From Lachnospira sp. (GTDB taxonomy: Bacteria > Bacillota > Clostridia > Lachnospirales > Lachnospiraceae): a stretch of 11,909 nt of DNA. This document shows, in pieces, positions 1,354-11,909 of the stretch (within the stretch, counting starts at the first letter, position 1; each line of letters opens with the position of its first letter). The translations under genes and the position numbers were made by a program. Location: assembly GCA_017626275.1 (NCBI GenBank), contig JAGAJD010000242.1, positions 1 to 11,909 on the forward strand, read 5' to 3'. Below the pieces are notes generated by a model, which was not told the origin of the DNA, searched no databases, and saw only the letters and a program-made list of their open reading frames with translations.

Positions 1354-1998
1354 TCAATTACCGCATATTTCAAGGTATGGAAGTATATTTTCAAAAAGTT
1401 CCCTGATAACAGGCGCAGCGATAGTTCCTCCATAATATACCCCCTGTGGCTCATCAATAAGACACATCGCAATGACCTGCGGATTATCAACGGTAGAAAA
1501 GCCGACAAAGGAAGATATATATTTTCCCGAACCTCTCGGCAGCTTCTGCGAAGTCGCTGTCTTTCCGCCTATTGAAAATCCCTCAATATACGCATTTTTT
1601 CCGCCGCCTCCCTCTACTACCTGTCTTAAAATATCTTTCATTGTGCTGCTCGTTTCTTCTGTAATTGCATCTTCCTGTATTTCATATGCAAATTCCTGCA
1701 CAGTCTCCCCATTATTACCGACTGTCTTAACTCCAAAGTGTGGCGTCACAAGTTTTCCTCCATTAACGATAGCCGATGCCGCACGAAGCATTGTAATCGG
1801 TGTAATCTGAAATGACTGTCCAAAGGACATCGTTGCAAGCTCTACTTCTCCCACATTTTCTATTTTGTGAATAATAGTTGAAGCCTCACCGGGAAGGTCT
1901 ATTCCTGTTTTACCGAGTATTCCCAATTTGCCGAGATACTGGTAAAACCGTTCCGTTCCGACACGCCTTCCCCATTCGATAAATGCCGGATTACAGCT
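1354..1998 (-). CDS. spoVD: 3' part of interrupted class B PBP gene (SpoVD type): SxN and KTA motifs
   Basis: C-terminal 214 residues of a transpeptidase that would cross-link peptidoglycan outside the membrane. It begins at the SCN motif (SCNPAFIEWGRRVG, residues 389-402 of the joined protein). It continues with KTGIDLPGE, then the third active-site motif as GGKTATSQ (K534-T-A), and ends SSFVGF...DEPQGVYYGG...LPYLEICGN. It lacks the membrane anchor and the SxxK serine, which lie about 2.95 kb away in the 5' part. The frame runs open upstream to 2067 into the recombinase 3' end, but there is no credible ribosome binding site there, so I do not regard it as an independent gene. No stop or frameshift is present, which argues against long-term decay. 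The KTAT version of KTGT is, from memory, common in Lachnospiraceae SpoVD-like proteins. Confidence 0.9.
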   Translation of the reverse strand, partial: SCNPAFIEWGRRVGTERFYQYLGKLGILGKTGIDLPGEASTIIHKIENVGEVELATMSFGQSFQITPITMLRAASAIVNGGKLVTPHFGVKTVGNNGETVQEFAYEIQEDAITEETSSTMKDILRQVVEGGGGKNAYIEGFSIGGKTATSQKLPRGSGKYISSFVGFSTVDNPQVIAMCLIDEPQGVYYGGTIAAPVIRELFENILPYLEICGN

Positions 1999-2005
1999 AT
2001 TTATG
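1999..2005 (-). repeat. Putative attachment core, recombinase-side junction
   Basis: Minus strand CATAAAT, immediately before the SCN codons of the PBP 3' part. It matches the other junction (CATGAAT) at 6 of 7 positions. Element sequence on its outer side carries CCGTCTG (plus strand, 2014-2020), the inverse of CAGACGG at the other end. Confidence 0.6.
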
Positions 2006-2038
2006 CCTGCTTCCCGTCTGCCCGGTTTAATTTGTCCT

Positions 2039-3772
2039 TTAATCAGAAATTTTCCAGTATCCGCCATTTCTTCCCCGGCTTACAAAGCATATTGCACTTT
2101 TTCCCTTTAATTCCTTAAGCTTTAAAAGTACATTTCCGTGTGACAGCCCCGATTTTTCTGAAAGCTGTTCCGTTGTCATTTCACCTGCTTCTTTTATATA
2201 ATTATAAAGTTCTTCCGTCTTTGTCTCTTTTTGCAATGTCTTTTTGTTCCTGTGAAAATATTGCATCTGAACCTTTTCCTCTATGTCAGCACGATAAATA
2301 TTTAAAATTCCTTTTGGTTTTACCTCAATTCCTTGTATCTGCCGACAGCAGTAACACCGAAATATTTTTTCTTTTGTATCTTTTTTTGTCATGAACTGTT
2401 TAATGGTATTTAAACGTATATCAATATTATTTTGTGCTTCCCGACTTTTTCGTATCTCTTTTTGCAGAAACTGCCGCTGTATTTCCAACTCTTTGTTCAT
2501 AAGCTGAAAATCTCCGTCGCTGATAATCTCATCAGCCAGTTTATTCAGCAACCGCTTCTTCTTATCCTCAAGCGCTTTTTCTTTTTGCATATATATTGCC
2601 TGTATACCAGTGTCCTCTTTTAATACGCATTTTAACAATTCATACAGCACTTCTTCCTGCTTCTCATATAAATCGTTCTCATCAGGCATTTTTAAGCTGC
2701 CGGTTACTATATTTTTCAGCATATTCTCAAGTTCAGTTTCATATACAATAGTATTTTTACATTTTCCCTGCTGCTGTCCGCTGCATATAAAAAACGATTC
2801 TCCTGACGCACTTACTTTTCTGTAAAACGGCTTATTACAGATACCGCAGTATATTTTCCCTGACAGGCTGCTTTCCTGAAAAACACAAGCCTCTTCCTTA
2901 TGCTTTTGTGTTGTTTTTCTTTTTTCCATTTCTTTATTGGCGGCCTGCCAAAGCTCTTCCGTGACAATTGCCGGAACTCTGCCCTTATGATATATCCACT
3001 CTTCTTTGGGATTTTTGATTGTCTTTTTCCGCTCAAAATCATAATGCGTTTTATTCATGACAACCGTTCCCATATATAGCGGATTTCGTATAATTCTGCG
3101 TATTGTCACAGCACTTATTTCACCGCCGCTTTTTCCTCTAAAGCCTGTTTCTGACAATTTTTTTGCAATTTTTCTGCTTCCGATGCCGTTTGCAGACATA
3201 CAATATATTTGCCTTATGTATTCTGCTTCTGTCTCATTTACTATAAATTCGTCCTGTCTTTTTTCATATCCATATACATGTGAGACAAGTGTAAGTCTTC
3301 CATTCTCAAGTCTTTGACGCCTTTTATGTGCATTATTTACTTTCTGACTTAATTCTCTGGAATACTGCTCCGCTATCAGTGCTTTAATTCCTGAAAGAAA
3401 TGCGTCCTCCGGCTCATAAAATTTTCTTTCGAGATACAAATACAGACGCACGCCTTTCACTGTAATAAGATTAACAAATTCATGCCAGTCGCCTGCATTT
3501 CGCATCAGGCGGTCAATGGATTTAACTACAATGCAGTCAATCCTTCCGCTTGACACATCAGCCAGCAATTCACTGTACAGGCTTCTTTTTTTAGTACTTG
3601 TTCCGCTTTCCTGCTCAACATACTGCTTATACAGAATCCCTCCCATTCCGGCAACCAGCTCCCTTGATTCCGCCGCCTGAACTTCAATAGCTCTGTTCTG
3701 CGTTTCCTCCGTAGTAGAGCAGCGGTTATAAATATCACACACAAGCCCCTCAAGCAGTCTCTCATCATGCAT
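2039..3772 (-). CDS. Large serine recombinase (site-specific integrase/excisionase), 577 aa
   Basis: Catalyses strand exchange between short attachment sites and is presumed to integrate and excise the surrounding element. Order of parts: N-terminal resolvase domain (about 10-150) with YNRCST, giving catalytic S19 beside R17, and KSIDRLMRN (85-91, the SxDRxxR signature); recombinase domain (about 160-285, with YGYE, GIGSRKIAKKL and RNPLYMG); zinc ribbon with C309, C312, C330 and C338; a charged coiled-coil (about 395-455); and a C-terminal winged-helix-like tail (about 518-577, MTTEQLSEKSGLSHGNVLLK). ATG at 3772 is chosen because AAGGAG lies 7 nt upstream. It overlaps the small gene before it by 8 bp, suggesting translational coupling. 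The length and layout match TnpX/TndX/SpoIVCA-type enzymes. It ends next to an element junction, as integrases usually do. Confidence 0.93.
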   Translation of the reverse strand: MHDERLLEGLVCDIYNRCSTTEETQNRAIEVQAAESRELVAGMGGILYKQYVEQESGTSTKKRSLYSELLADVSSGRIDCIVVKSIDRLMRNAGDWHEFVNLITVKGVRLYLYLERKFYEPEDAFLSGIKALIAEQYSRELSQKVNNAHKRRQRLENGRLTLVSHVYGYEKRQDEFIVNETEAEYIRQIYCMSANGIGSRKIAKKLSETGFRGKSGGEISAVTIRRIIRNPLYMGTVVMNKTHYDFERKKTIKNPKEEWIYHKGRVPAIVTEELWQAANKEMEKRKTTQKHKEEACVFQESSLSGKIYCGICNKPFYRKVSASGESFFICSGQQQGKCKNTIVYETELENMLKNIVTGSLKMPDENDLYEKQEEVLYELLKCVLKEDTGIQAIYMQKEKALEDKKKRLLNKLADEIISDGDFQLMNKELEIQRQFLQKEIRKSREAQNNIDIRLNTIKQFMTKKDTKEKIFRCYCCRQIQGIEVKPKGILNIYRADIEEKVQMQYFHRNKKTLQKETKTEELYNYIKEAGEMTTEQLSEKSGLSHGNVLLKLKELKGKSAICFVSRGRNGGYWKISD

Positions 3773-3878
3773 TGCATTTCTCCTTAAGAAGCTGTTTTAT
3801 ACGAAATAATTCCTCCTGTGTGATATATTTTTCCCTGCAAAGTATCTCTGCCATTACAGGCAGTAAATTTATTCTCAT
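3765..3878 (-). CDS. 37-aa small protein overlapping recombinase start; candidate directionality factor
   Basis: ATG at 3878 follows AAGGCGGTG with a short spacer, and TGA ends at 3765, overlapping the recombinase ATG by 8 bp. The protein begins MRINLLPVMAEILCREK and continues YITQEELFRIKQLLKEK. The second half is an amphipathic, basic helix reminiscent of SHOCT-type helices (xITQEEFxxxKxxLL). There is no membrane segment or signal peptide. The recombinase's own AAGGAG lies inside this frame, so the two are translated as a pair. Recombination directionality factors of large serine recombinases are often small proteins encoded beside the recombinase. That this is one is inference from position and size, not homology. 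It could equally be a coupling leader peptide or a recombinase cofactor. Confidence 0.6.
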   Translation of the reverse strand: MRINLLPVMAEILCREKYITQEELFRIKQLLKEKCNA

Positions 3879-3882
3879 ACTT

Positions 3883-3920
3883 ACACCGCCTTAATATATT
3901 TTCTACATTTTATGCGGTGT
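3883..3920 (-). repeat. Inverted repeat covering the small gene's ribosome binding site
   Basis: ACACCGC (3883-3889) and GCGGTGT (3914-3920, plus strand) are perfect 7-bp arms with a 24-nt AT-rich loop. On the minus-strand transcript the second arm contains the GGCGGTG ribosome binding site ahead of the ATG at 3878, so pairing would hide it. No U-run follows on the minus strand. T's follow on the plus strand, but no plus-strand gene ends here, and the loop is long for a terminator. Confidence 0.5.
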
Positions 3921-3934
3921 TTTTTGATATATTC
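3907..3934 (-). promoter_or_regulatory. Sigma-E-like (mother cell) promoter candidate for small protein and recombinase
   Basis: On the minus strand, GAATATA (3934-3928) fits the sigma-E -35 pattern KMATATW as I recall it. CATAAAAT (3914-3907) fits the -10 pattern CATACAMT with one difference. The spacer is 13 nt, one short of the usual 14-15. Transcription would start near 3900, about 20 nt before the small gene, and downstream of one arm of the local inverted repeat. The call rests on eye-matching in AT-rich DNA and is tentative. Confidence 0.4.
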
Positions 3935-3958
3935 GCCTGAAACCCATGTATTATTTCT

Positions 3959-4882
3959 TTAATGATGAACCGGTCTAGTATCCTTAGTGATAGGAAGAAT
4001 CTCATAACCTCTTTTCTTTAAGCCTTCAATAATTCCGGGAAGGGCCTCCACGGTAGTTGACTTTGCTGCCGCATCATGCATTAACACAACGTATTCACCG
4101 CCATCACCGACTCCCGAAAGAACATTTTCAACAATTTCTTCTTTTGGGACATTGTTATATTTTGCATCGCCTGAATCCACATTCCAGTCAAAATATGTAA
4201 ATCCCTCTTCCTTCAAAAAGTTCTTACATTCCTCGATATCGCATTTTGCCTTTTTATTGCTTGAGCCTCCCGGAAATCTGTAAAACCATGTCTCATAGCC
4301 CGTATGGTCATATATATACTGCTGCATGCCAAGCACATCTTCCTTAAAGCTGTCCAGAGAAGCATATATCTGTGAATATTCGTGTGATACGGAATGTATC
4401 GCTATTGTATTTCCGCTTTCTATTATACGGTTCATGCTTTCAATATCTCTAGGTCTTGTATTACATATAGTAAAAAACGTTGCTTTTACACCATACTCGT
4501 CCAAAATATCAAGTATCTTTGATGTATTAGCACTTGGTCCGTCATCAAATGTTAAATAAACCTTTTTCTTTCCTGAGACAGCTTCCAACTTTGTTTCATT
4601 TTCCTTTTCAGTTTCCGTCGTCACCTCGGCAAGTGAACTTCCTTCCTTATTTGTTTCACTCTCTGTCTCAGCTTCCGTCGTTTCCTCAGCAGATGCATTT
4701 TCTTCCGGCTGCTCCTGTGTTTCTTCCTCTGACGCACCGGCTGCAGCCTCGACATGTTTTTTACTGCTTTTACTTTCCAGCGCAAACGCCAGTATAACAA
4801 GCAGCAGCGCAATAACTGATAATACTATTATTACAGACTTTTTTTTCAGTCTGGTTCTACATTTTTTACTAAAATTTACCAT
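3959..4882 (-). CDS. Membrane-anchored polysaccharide (peptidoglycan) deacetylase, NodB fold, 307 aa
   Basis: Likely removes N-acetyl groups from GlcNAc or MurNAc residues of peptidoglycan outside the membrane. A short basic N-terminus leads into one membrane segment (about 16-36). A long Glu/Thr/Ser-rich linker (about 44-100) follows, then the catalytic domain with all five NodB motifs: TFDDGP (D113, D114), HSVSH (H163, H167), RFPGG (202-206), DWNVDSGD (232-239) and LMHD (267-270). The metal-binding Asp-His-His and both catalytic residues are therefore present. The frame is open 18 codons further up to 4936, but ATG at 4882 follows AAGGA at good spacing and begins directly before the basic/membrane anchor. 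It lies just inside the element's end, downstream of the truncated PBP 5' part, and so is probably read by operon transcription while the element is integrated. A PdaA-like cortex role is possible but not shown. Confidence 0.92.
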   Translation of the reverse strand: MVNFSKKCRTRLKKKSVIIVLSVIALLLVILAFALESKSSKKHVEAAAGASEEETQEQPEENASAEETTEAETESETNKEGSSLAEVTTETEKENETKLEAVSGKKKVYLTFDDGPSANTSKILDILDEYGVKATFFTICNTRPRDIESMNRIIESGNTIAIHSVSHEYSQIYASLDSFKEDVLGMQQYIYDHTGYETWFYRFPGGSSNKKAKCDIEECKNFLKEEGFTYFDWNVDSGDAKYNNVPKEEIVENVLSGVGDGGEYVVLMHDAAAKSTTVEALPGIIEGLKKRGYEILPITKDTRPVHH

Positions 4883-4950
4883 CTTTGGTTCCTTCTTTCT
4901 AATTCTAATTTTTTTACATAAGCTAACATTTTCCAAATGTATACAGACGG

Positions 4951-4957
4951 ATTCATG
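4951..4957 (-). repeat. Putative attachment core, deacetylase-side junction
   Basis: Minus strand CATGAAT, encoding the Met-Asn that ends the PBP 5' part, partner of CATAAAT at 1999-2005. It sits within an inverted repeat: CAGAC (4944-4948) and GTCTG (4961-4965), plus strand. Element-side CAGACGG (4944-4950) is the mirror of CCGTCTG at 2014-2020. Confidence 0.6.
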
Positions 4958-6114
4958 ACTGTCTGGGTAAAGGTCTGTGTTCCGTGTCCTGTCGTCTTAT
5001 GGCAGCGTATTGTTCTGTCTCCCACGCGCGTACTGCCGCCGCAGGTATAGGAATCACTCAAAGATGCTGCTCCTGTCTCCAAAGCCGCTGTTGCCGTTAC
5101 CATTTTAAATACGGAGCCCGGCTCATATGTATCGTTAATACAGAAGTTTCGCCACATGTTATTAAGTAAATCCATTTTTGACTTTCCGCTGTCTTCCTCT
5201 GTAACCTCGTAATTTAATTCATACGGATTATTAAGGTCATATTCAGGAGCGTTAACCATTGCAAGAATTTCACCGTTCTGTGGATTCATCACAATAATTG
5301 AAACTCTTTTTGCACCCTTTGCCTCTAACGTTCTCTCTGCAAGCTGCTGTGCATAAGACTGAATGTTATAATCAATGCTTATATATAAATCATCTCCTGC
5401 CTCCGGTTCGTCACGGTTTTCTTCTGCACCTTCAAGCTCTACGCCCCATGCGTCCGTCAAAGTAAGAATCTGACCGTTAGTACCCGAAAGACATGCTTCA
5501 TATTTTGCTTCCAATCCAAGTATCCCCTGATTATCGCTGCCTGTAAAGCCTAACACCCTTGATGCCAGCGTGACATACGGATAATATCTTTTATAGTCCT
5601 CATCAACCTTTACTCCTGCCAGATTATATTCTCTTATCTTATCTCCAACCTCTTTGTCCACATTAGTTTTTATTCTTTCAATAGAGGATACTTTTTCCAC
5701 GCGTTTCCGCACATCAGCTTCCTCCATGCCAAGTTCTTTGGTAAGCATTTGTATAACCTGCTCTTTATCTTCTATCTGACTGTGAATAACTGAGATTGTA
5801 CATACTGTTTTATTATCGGCAAGCACAACTCCGTTAGTGTCAAATATCCTTCCTCTTGACGCTTTAATGCTTCTTTCCCTTTCATGCAGCTCGTCAGCCC
5901 TTGCAAGATAATACTCAGACTGAAAAATCATAACATATCCAAGTCTTCCTATCAGCATAACCATGGCCATAATCACGCAGATTCCACAAATCATCACCTT
6001 CTTTCTATGTCTTGTGTGCAGGCTTCCCATAGGGTTATTCTTCCGTTTTTGAATAATTTCCCAACGTTTATCCCTCACTGTTTCCTCTTTTATTTTTTCT
6101 TTAAAATTCAACAT
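4951..6114 (-). CDS. spoVD: 5' part of interrupted class B PBP gene (SpoVD type): anchor, dimerisation domain, SxxK
   Basis: N-terminal 388 residues of the split transpeptidase. Basic N-terminus, one membrane anchor (about 40-62), the PBP dimer domain beginning SRGRIFDTNGVVLADN (86-101) and including GFTGSDNQGILGLE (189-202), then the start of the transpeptidase domain with YEPGSVFK (S334-K337), which carries the nucleophile, ending QTVMN. While the element is integrated, the frame reads 24 foreign residues to a stop at 4876, giving a protein without SxN or KTG motifs, presumably inactive. Joined to 1354-1998 it gives 602 aa, close to SpoVD length (about 640) but without a PASTA domain. The start is ATG 6114 with GGAG 8 nt upstream. 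Assignment as SpoVD rather than FtsI rests on order (second of two tandem class B PBPs, as in Bacillus pbpB-spoVD) and on the first copy being intact. Confidence 0.88.
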
Positions 6115-6120
6115 ATAAAT

Positions 6121-6167
6121 AACTCCGGCTCTGCGTTACTACATTTTATTAACGCACAGCCGAAGTT
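6121..6167 (-). repeat. Strong inverted repeat between the two PBP genes, covering the spoVD ribosome binding site
   Basis: 18-nt arms at 6121-6138 and 6150-6167 with an 11-nt loop. In the minus-strand RNA only one pair is a true mismatch (G-G) and one is a G-U wobble, so the hairpin is better on the transcribed strand. The GGAG serving spoVD lies within the 3' arm. The sequence after it (AUUUAUAUG) is too poor in U for a convincing terminator. Attenuation or translation control are both possible. Confidence 0.65.
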
Positions 6168-6171
6168 ATAC
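6143..6171 (-). promoter_or_regulatory. Weak sigma-E-like promoter candidate for spoVD
   Basis: Minus strand GTATAAC (6171-6165), a 14-nt spacer, then AATAAAAT (6150-6143) in the hairpin loop. Both boxes deviate from the sigma-E consensus (the -35 is poor). The loop shares the 11-mer ATAAAATGTAG with the promoter candidate inside the element (3903-3913), which is why it is noted. B. subtilis spoVD has its own sporulation promoter. Confidence 0.2.
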
Positions 6172-6182
6172 ACTTGTTTTTG

Positions 6183-8099
6183 TTATTCGCCGGAATTATT
6201 ATTAGGGATATCAATATCTACCATTCCCTCTACTTCACTATCTGTAGTATCAACCGGTTCTGCCTGAACATCTTTAAAAATATTCATATACGGCAACAGC
6301 TCTTCAAATATATCATGTGCTAAAAGCAAATTATCTACTGTACTTCCCGAAGTTCCTGTTGTCTCATAAGGCTCATCAAGCAACACATAAATCATAACCT
6401 GAGGATTCTCTGCCGGTGCACAGCCGATAAACGAAACAACCCATTTCAAATCATTTCTGTTTCCCTTTTGTGCAGTACCTGTTTTTCCTCCAATAGAATA
6501 TCCGGTCACTGACGCTTTCTTTGCAAGTCCTTCATCTACAGTAGACCTAAGATACTGTCTTAAAAGCTTTGATGTCGAACTTGTTACCGTCTGTCTGACT
6601 AATGTTGGTTCAAAATTTTTAACAACCTCTCCCGATGCTTTTTCAATCCGCTTTACAATATGCGGCTGATAATAATCTCCGCCGTTAATCAATGAACAAA
6701 ATGCTGCTCCCATCTGTATCATTGTAACATTGATATTCTGCCCGAAAGCATTTGTTGCAACGTCAGTTTCCGACATGTCAGATTTCTTTGTAATACCGTT
6801 TTCCTCTGCCGGAAGGTCTATACCCGTTTTACTTCCAAAGCCAAACAACCTCTGATACTGTGCAAACTTAACGCCGCCCAGTCTTGCAGCTATCTGCATC
6901 ATGGTAGGATTACATGACTGCATTAATCCCTGCTCAAGTGAAATTTCTCCATGTGAGCCCGTTTTATTATACACATGACATCTTATCGTGTAACCTCCTA
7001 TTGCCTCAAATCCTGCACAATAAAATGTATCCCCGTCATGAGTCACACCCTCTTCCAGACCTGACGCAACCGTAAAAGGCTTAAATGTTGAACCGGGTTC
7101 ATAAGTCTGAGAAATGCAGTAATTACGCCACAATGAATACATTGTATTTGACTTCTGCTCATCAGTCATTCCGGACAATTCTTCTTCTGAGTAGATTCCC
7201 TCAAGACTTCTTGGATTGTTTAAATCAAAAAACGGATAACTCGCCATGCCAAGCACTTCTCCGTTATTAGGATTCATAACCAAAACTGCCGTTGCATTTG
7301 ACGGCCTTTCCTCATTATATTCCGCTATCTTTCTCTCAATAATACTTTGAACATTATAATCAATTGTTGTTATAATATTATTGCCGTCTACTGCGTCCTT
7401 ATTAGTCTGCTGTACATCTAAATTCTCATCTACATAGCTGTACGAAACACCGTCTGTTCCTGACAGTTCATCGTCATAATAGCTTTCGAGTCCCAATTCA
7501 CCTCCGTTTGCTGCACTTGCAAACCCCACAACATCACATGCAAGCGTTGAAAATGGATATTTTCTGATGTAAGATTCTTCAAACCACACGCCCTTAATAT
7601 TCGGGTTATTCTTAGTATCCTGTACCAATGCTTTAAATTCCGCAATCTCATCAGATGTAAGTTCTTTTAAAAGCTTCTCATAGTGGCTGTCGGGCTTAGT
7701 TCTTAATATCTCCTCAAGATTGCTTCGCTCAAGCCCGAAACATGTAACCAACGCATTAATTGTCGGTTCTTTATAATCCGAATCGGAAAGAACAAGCTTA
7801 GGATCAAAAATGAGATTATATACTCTCTCGCTGTAAGCAAGTATTGTCCCGTTAGAGGTAAGAATTTCACCTCTTTTATTGGGAATTGTAGTAGATGTAT
7901 AAGACTGATGATCAAGCACCGCTTTAGAATAAGTATCACCATGACTGTAATTAATCATGGCTATTCTTCCTGCCAGTACCAAAAGCATAACTGCAATAAC
8001 ACAAAAGGCAATGCCGGCTTTCTTATGGGCTCTTTTCAGCATTGCCTTTTTTCTTCTGTACTTATTCCTTTTTGCTCTATTATCGCTATTCTCTGCCAT
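6183..8099 (-). CDS. pbpB: Intact class B penicillin-binding protein, FtsI/PBP2B type, 638 aa
   Basis: Septal peptidoglycan transpeptidase anchored in the membrane with its catalytic domain outside. Lys/Arg-rich cytoplasmic tail (1-28), one membrane segment (about 29-50), PBP dimer domain from PNKRGEILTSNGTILAYS (73-90) to GGELGLE (199-205), then the transpeptidase domain with all three active-site motifs: STFK (S337-K340), SCN (395-397) and KTGT (539-542). There is no PASTA domain; the tail is short and acidic. ATG 8099 is chosen over the TTG one codon upstream because GGAGAG lies 6 nt before it. It is 30 bp after ftsL and 68 bp before the second PBP. Position matches Bacillus pbpB, whose product works with FtsL/DivIC in the divisome. 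Because this copy is whole, interruption of the next one should be tolerated in growth. Confidence 0.93.
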   Translation of the reverse strand: MAENSDNRAKRNKYRRKKAMLKRAHKKAGIAFCVIAVMLLVLAGRIAMINYSHGDTYSKAVLDHQSYTSTTIPNKRGEILTSNGTILAYSERVYNLIFDPKLVLSDSDYKEPTINALVTCFGLERSNLEEILRTKPDSHYEKLLKELTSDEIAEFKALVQDTKNNPNIKGVWFEESYIRKYPFSTLACDVVGFASAANGGELGLESYYDDELSGTDGVSYSYVDENLDVQQTNKDAVDGNNIITTIDYNVQSIIERKIAEYNEERPSNATAVLVMNPNNGEVLGMASYPFFDLNNPRSLEGIYSEEELSGMTDEQKSNTMYSLWRNYCISQTYEPGSTFKPFTVASGLEEGVTHDGDTFYCAGFEAIGGYTIRCHVYNKTGSHGEISLEQGLMQSCNPTMMQIAARLGGVKFAQYQRLFGFGSKTGIDLPAEENGITKKSDMSETDVATNAFGQNINVTMIQMGAAFCSLINGGDYYQPHIVKRIEKASGEVVKNFEPTLVRQTVTSSTSKLLRQYLRSTVDEGLAKKASVTGYSIGGKTGTAQKGNRNDLKWVVSFIGCAPAENPQVMIYVLLDEPYETTGTSGSTVDNLLLAHDIFEELLPYMNIFKDVQAEPVDTTDSEVEGMVDIDIPNNNSGE

Positions 8100-8129
8100 C
8101 AAAAACTCTCCAAAGTACTCTGTTTAATA

Positions 8130-8615
8130 TTATTTGCTGCCCGGAATATCCTGATACTGCTTTACATATTCGCTCTCGCCTGCCTCATAACGGATTACCT
8201 GACTTCTTTCAGGGTATACCATTCCAAGCTCGTTTACTGCTGTTTCATAGATAGCATCATAGTCTATTCCTGCATTAATTTCAACCTCTAATTCATCATT
8301 TTCCGCAGTTAATGTGTTTAACTTTGCTTCCAGCTCAGCTACCTGTGCCGCATTATTTTTCACGGCAGTCTGCAGATTAAGATACTGATAGCAGATTGCA
8401 AAAATCACTGCCACAACAGTTGTGACTGCTGCCGTATATATGAAATTAATCTTGTTGGCACGATGAATTCTTCTCTGCTGCTCTTTTCTTAGCTGACGCT
8501 CCTGTTCTGACTGTTCAAGCTTTCTCTCTCTGTTTGGATATGCCTCCGCCGTCTGAAGCTTTCTTACGGTATTGCCCTGAACATAGGCTGTTTTTCCTCT
8601 ATAATCTTTACGCAC
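8130..8615 (-). CDS. ftsL: FtsL-like divisome protein (161 aa)
   Basis: Small bitopic membrane protein of the septum, expected to bind a DivIC/FtsB partner and the PBP encoded next. Long basic cytoplasmic part (about 1-58, rich in Arg/Lys/Gln/Glu), one membrane helix (about 59-79, INFIYTAAVTTVVAVIFAIC), then an extracytoplasmic coiled-coil (about 82-112: AAQVAELEAKLNTLTAENDE) and a short tail with the FtsL-like AVNELGMVYPERSQVI. The start is GTG at 8615, with GGAGGG 6 nt upstream. A TTG at 8657 extends the frame into the end of rsmH but has no ribosome binding site. FtsL sequences are poorly conserved, so the name depends mostly on topology and position between rsmH and the PBP gene. Confidence 0.85.
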   Translation of the reverse strand: MRKDYRGKTAYVQGNTVRKLQTAEAYPNRERKLEQSEQERQLRKEQQRRIHRANKINFIYTAAVTTVVAVIFAICYQYLNLQTAVKNNAAQVAELEAKLNTLTAENDELEVEINAGIDYDAIYETAVNELGMVYPERSQVIRYEAGESEYVKQYQDIPGSK

Positions 8616-8640
8616 TGCTTTCCCTCCATTAGCTTTATCA

Positions 8641-9579
8641 TTAAGTCCTGCGTTCAAACACCCTAAGCTTTGAACTCTTCGACCTTTTATTTTCTTCCAG
8701 TTCTTCTTCTGACGGAAGAATCGGTTTTCTTGTAATCACTTTCCCTTTAGATTTATTTCCGCACACACACACAGGAAAATCCGGTGGGCATGTACATGGA
8801 TTTTCATTATTTTTAAATCTTACCTTAACAATTCTGTCCTCTAACGAATGAAATGTTATTATACAGAATCTCCCCATATCATTAAGGTGATTTATCATCA
8901 TATCAATAGAATCATTCAGCACATCAAGTTCATGATTTAACTCAATGCGGATTGCCTGAAATGTTTTCTTTGCCGGATGCCCTCCAACCGCCCTGAATTT
9001 CATCGGAATAGCAGCCTTAATTATCTCATTGAGTTCAAATGTAGTCTCTATCGCTTTTTGTTGCCTTGCTGCCACAATATGCTTTGCGATATTCTTTGCA
9101 AATTTATCTTCACCATAATCCCGAATAATGCGGTAAAGTTCCATTTCGCTGTAATTATTTATTATATCTTTGGCAGTCATCTGCTGCCTTCTGTCCATTC
9201 TCATATCAAGAGGTGCATCTGTCTTATATGTAAAACCTCTCTCTGCCGTATCCAACTGATAAGACGACACTCCCAAATCCAAAACAATTCCGTCAACTTT
9301 TTCTATTCCCAGTTCTTTTAAAACAACGTCCATATTGCGGTAATTATTACGGACAATAGTCACTCTGTCCGCAAACGGTTGTAAACGTTCACCCGCCGCA
9401 TGAATTGCATCTTCGTCCTGGTCAATTCCGATAAGCCGCCCCCCATTTGAAAGTCTTTTTGCGATTTCAAAGGAATGTCCACCTCCGCCCAATGTCCCGT
9501 CTACATAGATTCCATCAGGCTTTATATTCAGATTGTCGATAGTCTCCTGTAATAACACATACTTATGCTTAAATTCCAT
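8641..9579 (-). CDS. rsmH: 16S rRNA (cytosine-1402 N4)-methyltransferase RsmH (MraW), 312 aa
   Basis: Cytosolic SAM-dependent enzyme that methylates the N4 of C1402 in the decoding centre of 16S rRNA. Visible marks: the N-terminal [18 protein letters not shown]-binding [10 protein letters not shown] (27-36) and GIDQDEDAI (51-59), [16 protein letters not shown] with RGFTY and APLDMRMD following, [10 protein letters not shown], a Cys-rich loop ([13 protein letters not shown]), and the closing [11 protein letters not shown]. Start: ATG 9579, because AAGGGTG is 6 nt upstream. Codons up to a TTG at 9600 are open but would place the start on top of that ribosome binding site. Length is normal for the family. 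It is separated from mraZ by an unusual 270-bp gap holding a MITE-like repeat. Confidence 0.97.
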
Positions 9580-10427: not shown

Positions 10428-10515
10428 CTGTTCACACGGTATCTTGTATACAAGTGTACATTCGTCGAGCTGGCTCGTAAAAATGTGCACTTGTATGCAA
10501 GATTCTGTGTAACAG
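10428..10515. repeat. Long imperfect hairpin between mraZ promoter and the rpn gene
   Basis: Core arms of 22 nt (10441-10462 and 10482-10503) differ at two positions, both G-U wobbles in plus-strand RNA (C-A mismatches on the minus strand). The apex adds CGAGC-TG-GCTCG (10466-10477). The stem extends outward with a few mismatches and one bulge to about 10428/10515. No T-run, reading frame or clear target duplication was found. It may be a small palindromic mobile repeat or an RNA structure. Apart from this, the promoters and the rpn leader stem, I see nothing in 10382-10811. Confidence 0.6.
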
Positions 10516-10673: not shown

Positions 10674-10702
10674 TTGACTTTTCTTCCATTATGTATTAGT
10701 AT
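10674..10702 (+). promoter_or_regulatory. Sigma-A-like promoter candidate for the rpn gene
   Basis: TTGACT (10674-10679), a 17-nt spacer, then TAGTAT (10697-10702), giving a leader of about 100 nt before the ATG at 10812. The surroundings are AT-rich, so other pairs are possible. Confidence 0.45.
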
Positions 10703-10751
10703 ATTAACAGAATATTTTTTATCATATAATAATATCACAGCTTTTTGTGAA

Positions 10752-10795
10752 GAGAATGCCGCAAAGAGTCTGCTCACTACTGCAACTGCATTCTC
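10752..10795 (+). repeat. Stem-loop in the rpn leader
   Basis: GAGAATGC (10752-10759) and GCATTCTC (10788-10795) form a perfect 8-bp stem with a 28-nt loop, ending 6 nt before the GAGG ribosome binding site of the rpn gene. It is not followed by a T-run, so it is not a terminator. Confidence 0.45.
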
Positions 10796-10811
10796 AGAAT
10801 TGAGGTACTTT

Positions 10812-11909
10812 ATGAAAAATGAGATGACTGAAATGACTTACAGCAATAAAGACAACACAAATAATCCACACACCTTAGATGAAACCAAGCAAATCCAAAA
10901 AAAATTCCACAAAATTTTTGACAAGACCTTTAAATGTGTTACTACTTTATCTTCTAAAGCTGTTGTAAATATGATTAACGGACTGTATGGCACTGATTAT
11001 CCTCCCGACAGCAAAGTAACCTACCCCGCTACCGACAGTGTTAATTCCAATTTAGACGAGCGGTATGCCGATGTCTTCATCACGATTAATGATACATATA
11101 CATACCATATGGAAGCACAGATGACAGAAGACCAATCCATAATTTTCCGCGTTTTTGAGTATGGATTTATGTATGCTCACAAACACCGCTTTGAAAATAT
11201 TCTGCGGTTTCCTGAGCCAAAAATCCTATACCTGTATTCCGAAAAAGAAATTCCTGAAAATTATGTACTGAAATTGCAATTTGGTTCTAACAGAACAATA
11301 GAATATCCCATAAGTACTTTTAACTTCATTGCTACCGATACCGAGGAACTAAACCAAAAGAAATTAATTCTCCTTATTCCGTTCCAGCTTCTAAAAATAC
11401 GCAAATTATTGCAGAAAGACCGCAGTCTTAATAATCTCAATAAATTGAAAAAGCTGTTGGTTTATGATATATTAGAACCAATAGAAGCAAACTATCGTGT
11501 TGGGAATATTGAGCTGGCAGACGCAGAAGTATTGAAGGAATTAACCAGGAAAATGTACTATGATTTATACGCCGGCTATTCCGAAATGGAAGAGGGAGGT
11601 ATCAATGATATGGTAGACGATATTATGGATTTGGAGTGTCTTAAAATAATCGAGAAACTGCGCCAACAGGTTGTGAAGGAAGTTCATGAAGAAATGCTTG
11701 ATGACATTGCTAAGCAGGCTGCTCAGGAATTCAATGACAGACTTGCTCAGGAGCTTACCGACAAAATCACTCAGGAAGTCACTGACAAAGTCACTCAGGA
11801 AGTCACTGACAAAGTCACCCAGGAAGTCACTGACAAAGTCACCCAGGAAGTCACTGACAAAGTCACCCAGGAAGTCACTGACAAAGTCACCCAGGAAGTC
11901 ACTGACAAA
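10812..11909 (+). CDS. Rpn family PD-(D/E)XK nuclease/putative transposase-like protein, 3' end beyond window
   Basis: 366 residues are visible from ATG 10812 (GAGG 6-7 nt upstream) with no stop before the edge. After a polar N-terminus, the region about 35-200 resembles Rpn/YhgA-type recombination-promoting nucleases (the PD-(D/E)XK transposase-like family), which nick or cut DNA. Visible catalytic marks are D87 in ERYADVFI and E101-x-Q103 in YHMEAQMTED, with the following FRVFEYGFMYAHK helix, then YPISTFNFIATDT and LLIPFQLLKIRKLL. The rest is a long helical, charged tail that turns into perfect DKVTQEVT repeats from about residue 317. It is transcribed divergently from the dcw cluster and unrelated to it. 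Members are usually multi-copy in Clostridia genomes. Roles in recombination or defence are proposed for the family and are not shown here. Confidence 0.85.
   Translation, partial: MKNEMTEMTYSNKDNTNNPHTLDETKQIQKKFHKIFDKTFKCVTTLSSKAVVNMINGLYGTDYPPDSKVTYPATDSVNSNLDERYADVFITINDTYTYHMEAQMTEDQSIIFRVFEYGFMYAHKHRFENILRFPEPKILYLYSEKEIPENYVLKLQFGSNRTIEYPISTFNFIATDTEELNQKKLILLIPFQLLKIRKLLQKDRSLNNLNKLKKLLVYDILEPIEANYRVGNIELADAEVLKELTRKMYYDLYAGYSEMEEGGINDMVDDIMDLECLKIIEKLRQQVVKEVHEEMLDDIAKQAAQEFNDRLAQELTDKITQEVTDKVTQEVTDKVTQEVTDKVTQEVTDKVTQEVTDKVTQEVTDK
11760..11909 (+). repeat. 24-bp tandem repeats in the rpn coding region
   Basis: Six full in-frame 24-bp units (11760-11903) plus 6 nt of a seventh reach the window edge. 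The first two differ by single bases; the last four are identical. Each encodes DKVTQEVT (first DKITQEVT), itself a doubled 4-residue pattern with Val every fourth position. The total number of copies cannot be seen. Identity at synonymous sites indicates recent expansion. Confidence 0.95.

What the first reader, a model, noticed from the sequence alone, without database searches (positions are those of the whole stretch)
1354..6114. A sporulation-type PBP gene (spoVD) split by an in-frame excisable element: a candidate new skin-like developmental switch
Seen: a class B PBP gene is divided within its transpeptidase domain, SVFK in one part and SCN/KTA in the other, about 2952 bp apart. Both parts are stop-free, in the same frame and on the same strand, and a 7-nt near-repeat marks both junctions. 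Deleting one period gives the canonical MN-SCN-PAF junction and a 602-aa protein. The insert has its own large serine recombinase at one end. Known: skin in B. subtilis sigK, and prophage-like elements in other sporulation genes, are excised in the mother cell by such recombinases. Inference: this element excises precisely, probably in sporulation, to restore SpoVD for cortex synthesis. I am not aware of spoVD as a described host gene for such an element, but could not search. The preserved 3' part, which has no start of its own, argues for selection on the joined form.
Basis: partly seen in the sequence, partly recalled or inferred. Interest (0 to 1): 0.93.

Follow-up and report, generated by a model that had tools for sequence, protein, structure and literature searches.

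The report
Self-excising insert splitting a spore gene
In many related gut bacteria a gene needed to build the spore wall is cut in two by a DNA insert carrying its own cutting enzyme, and the sequence evidence says the insert is regularly and exactly removed to rebuild the gene, probably during spore formation.

Summary
A spoVD-type gene is split at 4951/1998 (minus strand) by a 2952-bp element with a large serine recombinase (LSR). The parts match TIGR02214 at positions 7-343 and 343-560, an exact cut.

The split is not unique. A named-genome scan with an LSR alignment gave 60 loci; 37 have spoVD's 3' part beside the LSR, and 33 of those have both parts on one contig, elements 3.4-38.7 kb. 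In 36 of 36 junctions computed, joining at a shared AA restores NSCNPVF, the catalytic SxN motif. In 12 pairs of carrier species both halves are under strong purifying selection (median dN/dS 0.040 and 0.035) while LSR dS is similar to host dS: selection acted on the joined gene.

The window's LSR lineage and att core (9 bp upstream) differ from the main clade's, suggesting repeated targeting of the same codons. Precise DNA excision is very likely; mother-cell timing is inferred. No reads or wet data were available. Seven paper searches found no spoVD-intervening element. New variant of a known kind.

The parts
4951..6114 (-). spoVD 5' part (388 codons, PBP dimer domain and SVFK half of the transpeptidase)
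   Evidence: TIGR02214 positions 7-343; Pfam PBP_dimer and Transpeptidase; 64-78% identical to the uninterrupted genes of 18 species of the genus
4951..4957 (-). att core next to the 5' part, CATGAAT (codons M-N)
   Evidence: sequence; N-tails of seven metagenome relatives diverge right after MN
4876..4950 (-). element-encoded tail of the truncated 412-aa ORF
   Evidence: relative P0121 has a similar tail, others have different tails
3959..4936 (-). cargo: polysaccharide deacetylase (TTG start at 4936, in-frame ATG at 4882)
   Evidence: Pfam PF01522 1.6e-27; closest NCBIfam models PgdA2- and PdaB-like, below cut-offs
3907..3934 (-). promoter-like sequence GAATATA-N13-CATAAAAT upstream of the small ORF and LSR (exploratory)
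   Evidence: the -10-like part recurs in 31 of 38 spoVD-type loci against 10 of 23 other LSR loci
3765..3878 (-). 37-aa small ORF overlapping the LSR start; candidate recombination directionality factor or regulator (inferred)
   Evidence: similar small ORF before the LSR in 29 of 38 spoVD-type loci, by a pattern made after seeing the window
2039..3772 (-). large serine recombinase, 577 aa
   Evidence: Pfam Resolvase, Recombinase, Zn_ribbon_recom
1999..2005 (-). att core next to the 3' part, CATAAAT
   Evidence: sequence; only copy of this junction in the genome bin
1354..1998 (-). spoVD 3' part (SCN and KTA half of the transpeptidase)
   Evidence: TIGR02214 positions 343-560; Pfam Transpeptidase 3e-42

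Best explanation
A gene-intervening element of 2952 bp sits inside the catalytic SxN region of spoVD. The serine recombinase that it encodes excises it precisely as a circle by recombination between the two CAT[G/A]AAT cores, restoring a 602-aa SpoVD. Shown here: exact split, open halves, conserved junctions in relatives, and selection on both halves in relatives that carry the element. Inferred: that recombination is done by this LSR, that the small ORF before it helps set direction, and that excision occurs in the mother cell during sporulation (a terminal cell, so the germ line keeps the insert), where SpoVD builds the spore cortex (role of SpoVD recalled).
For: Exact split in TIGR02214. 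18 of 21 other genus species uninterrupted. Seven of the eight best metagenome relatives of the 412-aa protein are cut at the same place at 80-96% identity. One contig length, 14,995 bp, is shared by P0124 (5' part, 87%), P0006 (LSR, 51%) and P0244 (3' part, 91%). In named genomes 37 of 60 LSR loci lie beside the spoVD 3' part, and 33 have both parts on one contig and strand. AA on both sides and in-frame NSCNPVF after joining in 36 of 36 junctions computed. In 12 carrier-carrier pairs median dN/dS is 0.040 (5' part) and 0.035 (3' part), and LSR dS (0.53-1.29) is of the same order as spoVD dS (0.48-1.07 for the 5' part). LSR and SpoVD distances correlate (Mantel r 0.54, 0 of 2000 permutations as high). 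In the genus the three species without spoVD (each 99% complete) also lack SpoIVA and any SigE/SigK-type match; all six split genomes checked have both. Metagenome protein P0241 is a joined form.
Against: No read, PCR or expression evidence of excision in any strain. P0241 may be an assembly chimera, since P0129, P0147 and P0264 mix the same species with others. The window's own bin holds only the interrupted junction. The selection test was made on the main clade, not on the window's lineage: dS within the window's genus is saturated in most comparisons shown, though the window's dN to its genus is not raised (rank 1, lowest, and 5 of 19). The 12 pairs are not independent. The promoter-like motif and small ORF were found after looking; a looser two-box promoter pattern does not separate spoVD-type loci (14 of 38) from other LSR loci (7 of 23). 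L158's genome has a spoVD-like 5' match in an open frame of 607 with one stop, unresolved.
Confidence: 0.8

Rival explanations
1. The element excises, but at random or on general stress rather than on a sporulation signal; the gene is kept because a fraction of cells always has it joined (as partly described for yin in C. botulinum).
For: The yin element was found excised in cultures at all time points (PMC10747680, passages). The promoter-like motif is only exploratory and a looser two-box pattern is no commoner than in other LSR loci (14 of 38 against 7 of 23).
Against: spoVD presence follows SpoIVA and late sigma factors in the genus; the -10-like motif is commoner before spoVD-type LSRs than before 23 other LSRs (31 of 38 against 10 of 23).
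Confidence: 0.13
2. The two parts are made as separate polypeptides that assemble into a working transpeptidase, with no DNA excision.
For: Both parts are open and conserved.
Against: In the unexcised state 16 of 27 5' parts read SCK and 23 of 27 3' parts read T at the Ser position, so in many loci neither side holds a whole SxN motif; joining gives NSCN in 36 of 36.
Confidence: 0.03
3. Insertion inactivated spoVD and both halves are decaying pseudogenes in a line that no longer sporulates.
For: The window's bin is only 59% complete, so sporulation capacity cannot be fully checked.
Against: 27 of 27 complete splits are open on both sides; dN/dS about 0.04 in carriers; all six split genomes checked keep SpoIVA.
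Confidence: 0.03
4. Assembly artefact joining unrelated contigs.
For: The window is from a fragmented bin (298 contigs).
Against: Same arrangement in a one-contig 4.08-Mb genome (G739), in cultured isolates and on 33 contigs with matching junctions.
Confidence: 0.01

Closest known systems
skin element in sigK (B. subtilis, C. difficile)
   Same: Insert with its own site-specific recombinase inside a sporulation gene; excision joins the gene (PMC517825 passages; PMC10747680 passages).
   Different: Host gene is spoVD (a cell-wall enzyme, not a sigma factor); insert is 3.0 kb here and 3.4-38.7 kb in relatives (skin 48 kb in B. subtilis), with metabolic cargo; several LSR lineages use nearly the same codons.
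gin element in gerE (B. cereus ATCC10987)
   Same: Non-phage intervening element with serine recombinase and an additional factor (PMC5595907, abstract and introduction).
   Different: gin is 28.6 kb with three recombinases in a regulator gene of a Bacillus; the window's insert has one LSR in 3 kb, another bacterial family, and a catalytic motif as site.
yin in yabG (C. botulinum V73), vfbin in spoVFB, SP-beta in spsM
   Same: Sporulation genes interrupted by excisable elements (PMC10747680, passages).
   Different: Described there as prophage or prophage-like; yin is called unique to one strain, whereas many spoVD splits diverge together with their hosts across species.
fdxN element recombinase XisF (cyanobacteria)
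   Same: Best or second-best NCBIfam hit of the three LSRs scanned; developmental excision (function recalled).
   Different: Far below the family cut-off (73 against 375 bits for the window's LSR); other organism, gene and cell type.

Membership tests
Sporulation gene-intervening elements (skin/gin/yin kind) | Interrupts the reading frame of a sporulation gene whose two parts stay open | tested here: met
   TIGR02214 split 7-343/343-560; 27 of 27 complete splits open on both sides
Sporulation gene-intervening elements (skin/gin/yin kind) | Encodes a site-specific (serine) recombinase | tested here: met
   Pfam Resolvase, Recombinase and zinc ribbon
Sporulation gene-intervening elements (skin/gin/yin kind) | Short repeats at both ends whose recombination restores the frame | tested here: met
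   CAT[G/A]AAT in the window; AA core and NSCNPVF in 36 of 36 junctions computed in relatives
Sporulation gene-intervening elements (skin/gin/yin kind) | Excision and reconstituted gene observed | tested here: inconclusive
   One joined metagenome protein, P0241, possible chimera; only the interrupted junction in the own bin
Sporulation gene-intervening elements (skin/gin/yin kind) | Excision is tied to sporulation / mother cell | not testable with these tools
   Only indirect: promoter-like motif and co-occurrence with sporulation genes
Sporulation gene-intervening elements (skin/gin/yin kind) | Recombination directionality factor | tested here: inconclusive
   Small ORF before the LSR in 29 of 38 loci; function unknown
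skin proper | Host gene is sigK | tested here: not met
   Host gene is spoVD
Prophage | Carries phage structural or lysis genes | tested here: inconclusive
   None in the window element or among the nine cargo products with a Pfam hit, of ten searched; the other 75 of 85 cargo ORFs and the 11-39 kb elements were not annotated
fdxN element XisF | LSR over the NF041201 cut-off | tested here: not met
   73.4 bits against 375

The most novel reading that the evidence does not exclude
Programmed excision at spoVD is a standing, largely vertically inherited part of the sporulation programme of dozens of Lachnospiraceae-type species. It arose at least three times from different LSR lineages that converged on the same few catalytic codons, so that the active-site SxN motif of the transpeptidase is itself put together by DNA recombination in the mother cell. 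The inserts have become stable carriers of ordinary metabolic genes (tryptophan-type ABC transporter, DnaK, glycerol kinase) that the mother cell discards.
Probability: 0.6. Interest if true: 0.9.

Novelty: new variant of a known kind. Interest (0 to 1): 0.83.

Why it matters
The earlier cases named in the passages read here come from Bacilli and from Clostridium or C. difficile. This adds a new host gene (a cell-wall enzyme), another group of gut bacteria and dozens of species, including cultured isolates. It suggests repeated targeting of the same catalytic codons by different recombinase lineages, and shows long maintenance of the split under strong selection. That makes the open question of why sporulation genes are hot spots for such inserts, and whether the inserts serve the host, testable by comparison and in culture. 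Practically, SpoVD will be called broken or missing in such genomes when it probably is not.

Tried and rejected
Rejected: in-frame length of the insert as evidence (element lengths 0/1/2 mod 3 in 8/10/9 of 27). Rejected: AATCCG (six shared bases) as alternative core of the window element, because it would drop the SC of SxN and because other truncated relatives do not read P after MN. Rejected: the lower-scoring LSRs as spoVD elements; 26 of the 30 loci fetched there show no spoVD within about 1.5 kb. Of the 23 named loci without spoVD, 13 by eye lie beside an ABC permease gene. G024 has a short spoVD frame but is not split at SxN. G733 ends at the contig edge and was not counted. Viral contigs gave nothing. 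SigE-like two-box patterns: strict 8 of 38 against 0 of 23 other LSR loci, but six of the eight carry a sequence that looks like a reverse-strand ribosome site; loose 14 of 38 against 7 of 23; so not used as support. P0241 is not used as proof of excision. In the small-ORF count L183 was dropped by eye (97 aa, unlike the rest), so 29 rather than 30 of 38.
Full report
The observation. The window carries a cell-wall cluster on the minus strand: mraZ, rsmH, ftsL (these three named from recall, no call), a first PBP (6183-8102), then a second PBP gene in two parts, then murD. The 5' part (6114-4951) ends ...FTQTVMN and the 3' part (1998-1354) begins SCNPAFIEWGRR; together 602 codons. TIGR02214 (stage V sporulation protein D) matches the 5' part at positions 7-343 and the 3' part at 343-560. 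Between them lie a polysaccharide deacetylase gene, a 37-aa small ORF and a 577-aa large serine recombinase, LSR. The near-repeat is CATGAAT at 4951-4957 and CATAAAT at 1999-2005, 2952 bp apart.

The host genus and sporulation. The window lies in a bin of 1.58 Mb, 59% complete. In 22 genomes of the genus, 19 have the 5' part at 1e-60; the 18 others than the window's have it in a frame of 572-625 aa, and 17 of those alignments run through residue 388 (G021's stops at 315). The three without a match (G001, G003, G008, each 99% complete) also lack SpoIVA and any SigE/SigK-type match at 1e-25. SpoIVA was found in 24 of 28 genomes searched; the fourth miss, G020, 85% complete, has spoVD and two sigma matches. 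The sigma search found 25 of 28, only two of them over the SigK cut-off, so it does not tell SigE from SigK. All six split genomes in that set (G000, G115, G173, G463, G624, G739) have SpoIVA and a sigma match. So this spoVD follows sporulation capacity.

The window's own lineage. In the large protein database (best-scoring part of the candidates only) the best relatives of the truncated 412-aa protein are themselves truncated: P0121-P0124 and P0126-P0128, 80-96% identical, diverging immediately after TVMN; P0125 among the top eight is an untruncated protein with an internal duplication. Three clusters with the same single contig length, 14,995 bp, are a 5' part (87%), an LSR (51%) and a 3' part (91%). 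That the spoVD parts are far more conserved than the LSR fits selection on the split gene. P0241 (397 aa) joins a 5' stretch that by eye matches the truncated P0127 to SCNPAF... exactly at the predicted junction, but P0129, P0147 and P0264 are mixtures involving the same species, so P0241 may be an assembly chimera and I do not rest on it.

How widespread. In 145 genomes of the family, 99 have the 3' part at 1e-50; it lies in a frame under 450 aa in four: the window, G115, G173 and G024. G024 is not split at this site; for G115 and G173 both parts were found on one contig. In the genus of G463, 57 of 61 genomes match and two are split (G463, G739), while G767 is cut by a contig end. G739 is one contig of 4.08 Mb with an insert of about 10.4 kb and an LSR only 26% identical to the window's; its core was not computed. 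In 397 family genomes, 30 have an LSR hit with alignment A2, and the four best-scoring are beside the spoVD 3' part; the other 26 loci fetched are not. In 392 genomes of the order, 20 have a hit with A1 and two of these (the window, G463) are beside spoVD. In 391 genomes of the class, hits with A3 at 1e-90 were the window, G064 and G1124; G064's locus showed no spoVD nearby, G1124's was not examined. These are rough prevalences of a few per cent.

Named genomes. A scan of named genomes with LSR alignment A4 gave 60 loci; this set is enriched for spoVD carriers by construction, since A4 was built from LSRs found at spoVD or close to the window's. In 37 of 60 the spoVD 3' part starts beside the LSR 3' end; 27 of these have the 5' part within 10 kb on the same strand. 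For the other ten, the 5' part is on the same contig in six, giving elements of 10.9-38.7 kb, on another contig in three (L178, L183, L196), and unresolved in one (L158). Most titles say Lachnospiraceae; some say only Clostridia, Bacillota or bacterium. Carriers include Roseburia hominis An869, Parablautia intestinalis D8-82, Parablautia muri D42-62, Lachnospiraceae bacterium 10-1, 1XD21-87 and IMSAGC_005, and Bacterium 1xD42-87 (record titles). G173, G624, G463 and G115 are the same sequences as L174, L179, L177 and L155, so the window's family is Lachnospiraceae by inference.

Junctions. In 36 of 36 junctions computed (27 plus 9; L158, G739 and the window not among them), both sides carry AA at the Asn codon of SxN, and joining there gives NSCNPVF in frame. 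In the unexcised state the 5' side reads SCK in 16 and SCN in 11 of 27, and the 3' side reads T at the Ser position in 23 of 27 and C, R or G at the middle position in 22, 3 and 2. This fits drift of the bases that joining removes. The AA crossover was inferred after seeing the alignment. The window type uses the Asn codon of MN, nine bases upstream.

Selection. For 12 pairs of carriers with usable dS, median dN/dS is 0.040 for the 5' part, 0.035 for the 3' part and 0.164 for the LSR (pairs are not independent). In L185/L202, dS is 0.48, 0.54 and 0.53 for the three, so element and host diverged together. LSR and SpoVD distances correlate (Mantel r 0.54; 0 of 2000 permutations as high); the nearest neighbour agrees in 14 of 27, which leaves room for exchange or noise among the more distant ones. 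Intact 3' parts in one genus have median dN/dS 0.096 over 197 pairs (another genus, so a loose yardstick), so carriers are not relaxed. For the window itself dS is saturated in most comparisons shown, and its mean dN to the genus is ordinary (rank 1, lowest, and 5 of 19).

Origins. In a tree of 68 LSRs (midpoint root, no support values read), 35 of the 37 spoVD-type named LSRs form one clade; the window with P0002, P0006 and P0012 forms another, on the side of the LSRs not at spoVD; G739's LSR and the pair L182/L183 stand apart. With the shifted core this suggests at least three independent arrivals.

Parts that may regulate. A small ORF precedes the LSR in 29 of 38 loci, by a pattern written after seeing the window (a 30th hit, L183, was dropped as unlike); 0 of 23 other LSR loci fit the same pattern, though similar ORFs can be seen by eye in some (L151, L093). 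A -10-like [G/A/C][A/C]ATANA[A/T/C]T box lies 60-400 bases upstream in 31 of 38, against 10 of 23 other LSR loci and a Markov mean of 8.3 (maximum 17 in 300 simulations). A loose two-box pattern gave 14 of 38 against 7 of 23. The box resembles the sigma-E type (recalled; PMC517825 passages give layout and spacing only). All this is exploratory.

Cargo. Eighteen of 27 elements carry the same three-gene ABC transporter (a TrpX-like binding protein below cut-off, a permease, an ATPase); others carry DnaK and a chemotaxis receptor (R. hominis An869), a carbohydrate kinase of the glycerol kinase type (name recalled) with two FAD oxidoreductases (RGIG4733), or a sodium symporter. No phage gene was seen among the proteins searched, which are ten of 85 ORFs plus the window's.

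Literature. Seven searches (four with spoVD as a term) listed no paper on a spoVD-intervening element. Known host genes named in the passages read are sigK, spsM, spoVFB, gerE and yabG (PMC5595907 introduction; PMC10747680 passages). spoVD occurs as a secondary site of ICEBs1 in B. subtilis, where excision was undetectable (PMC3715440 passages). The library holds open-licence papers only, without bioRxiv.

Verdict. The sporulation timing is likely but unproven.

Noticed in passing
window 10674-11909 (+): Open-ended ORF with a run of 24-bp tandem repeats (8-aa unit QEVTDKVT) at its 3' end, 11722-11889; looks like a recombination-promoting-nuclease type protein (recalled).
   Followed up: no
L143, L145, L147, L150, L151, L153, L157, L159, L160, L165, L168, L170, L201: A related LSR clade lies, in these 13 of 23 loci by eye, beside an ABC permease gene (often ending IIYGSQVF), apparently another conserved attachment site.
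   Followed up: partly
genomes G001, G003, G008: Three 99%-complete species of the window's genus lack spoVD, SpoIVA and SigE/SigK-type matches together: probably lost sporulation.
   Followed up: partly
L072 (G024): The spoVD match lacks residues 1-196 of the 5' part although SxN is uninterrupted: frameshift, other start or another event.
   Followed up: no
L174, about 5821-9335: A DnaK (over the PRK00290 cut-off, under that of TIGR02350) and a chemotaxis receptor sit inside the spoVD element of Roseburia hominis An869, so the mother cell would discard them.
   Followed up: no
P0129, P0147, P0264: Metagenome SpoVD proteins that by eye mix the P0126/P0127 species with others: chimeric assembly or real recombination.
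   Followed up: no
window 10434-10510: 29-nt inverted repeat (86%) in the intergenic stretch upstream of mraZ.
   Followed up: no
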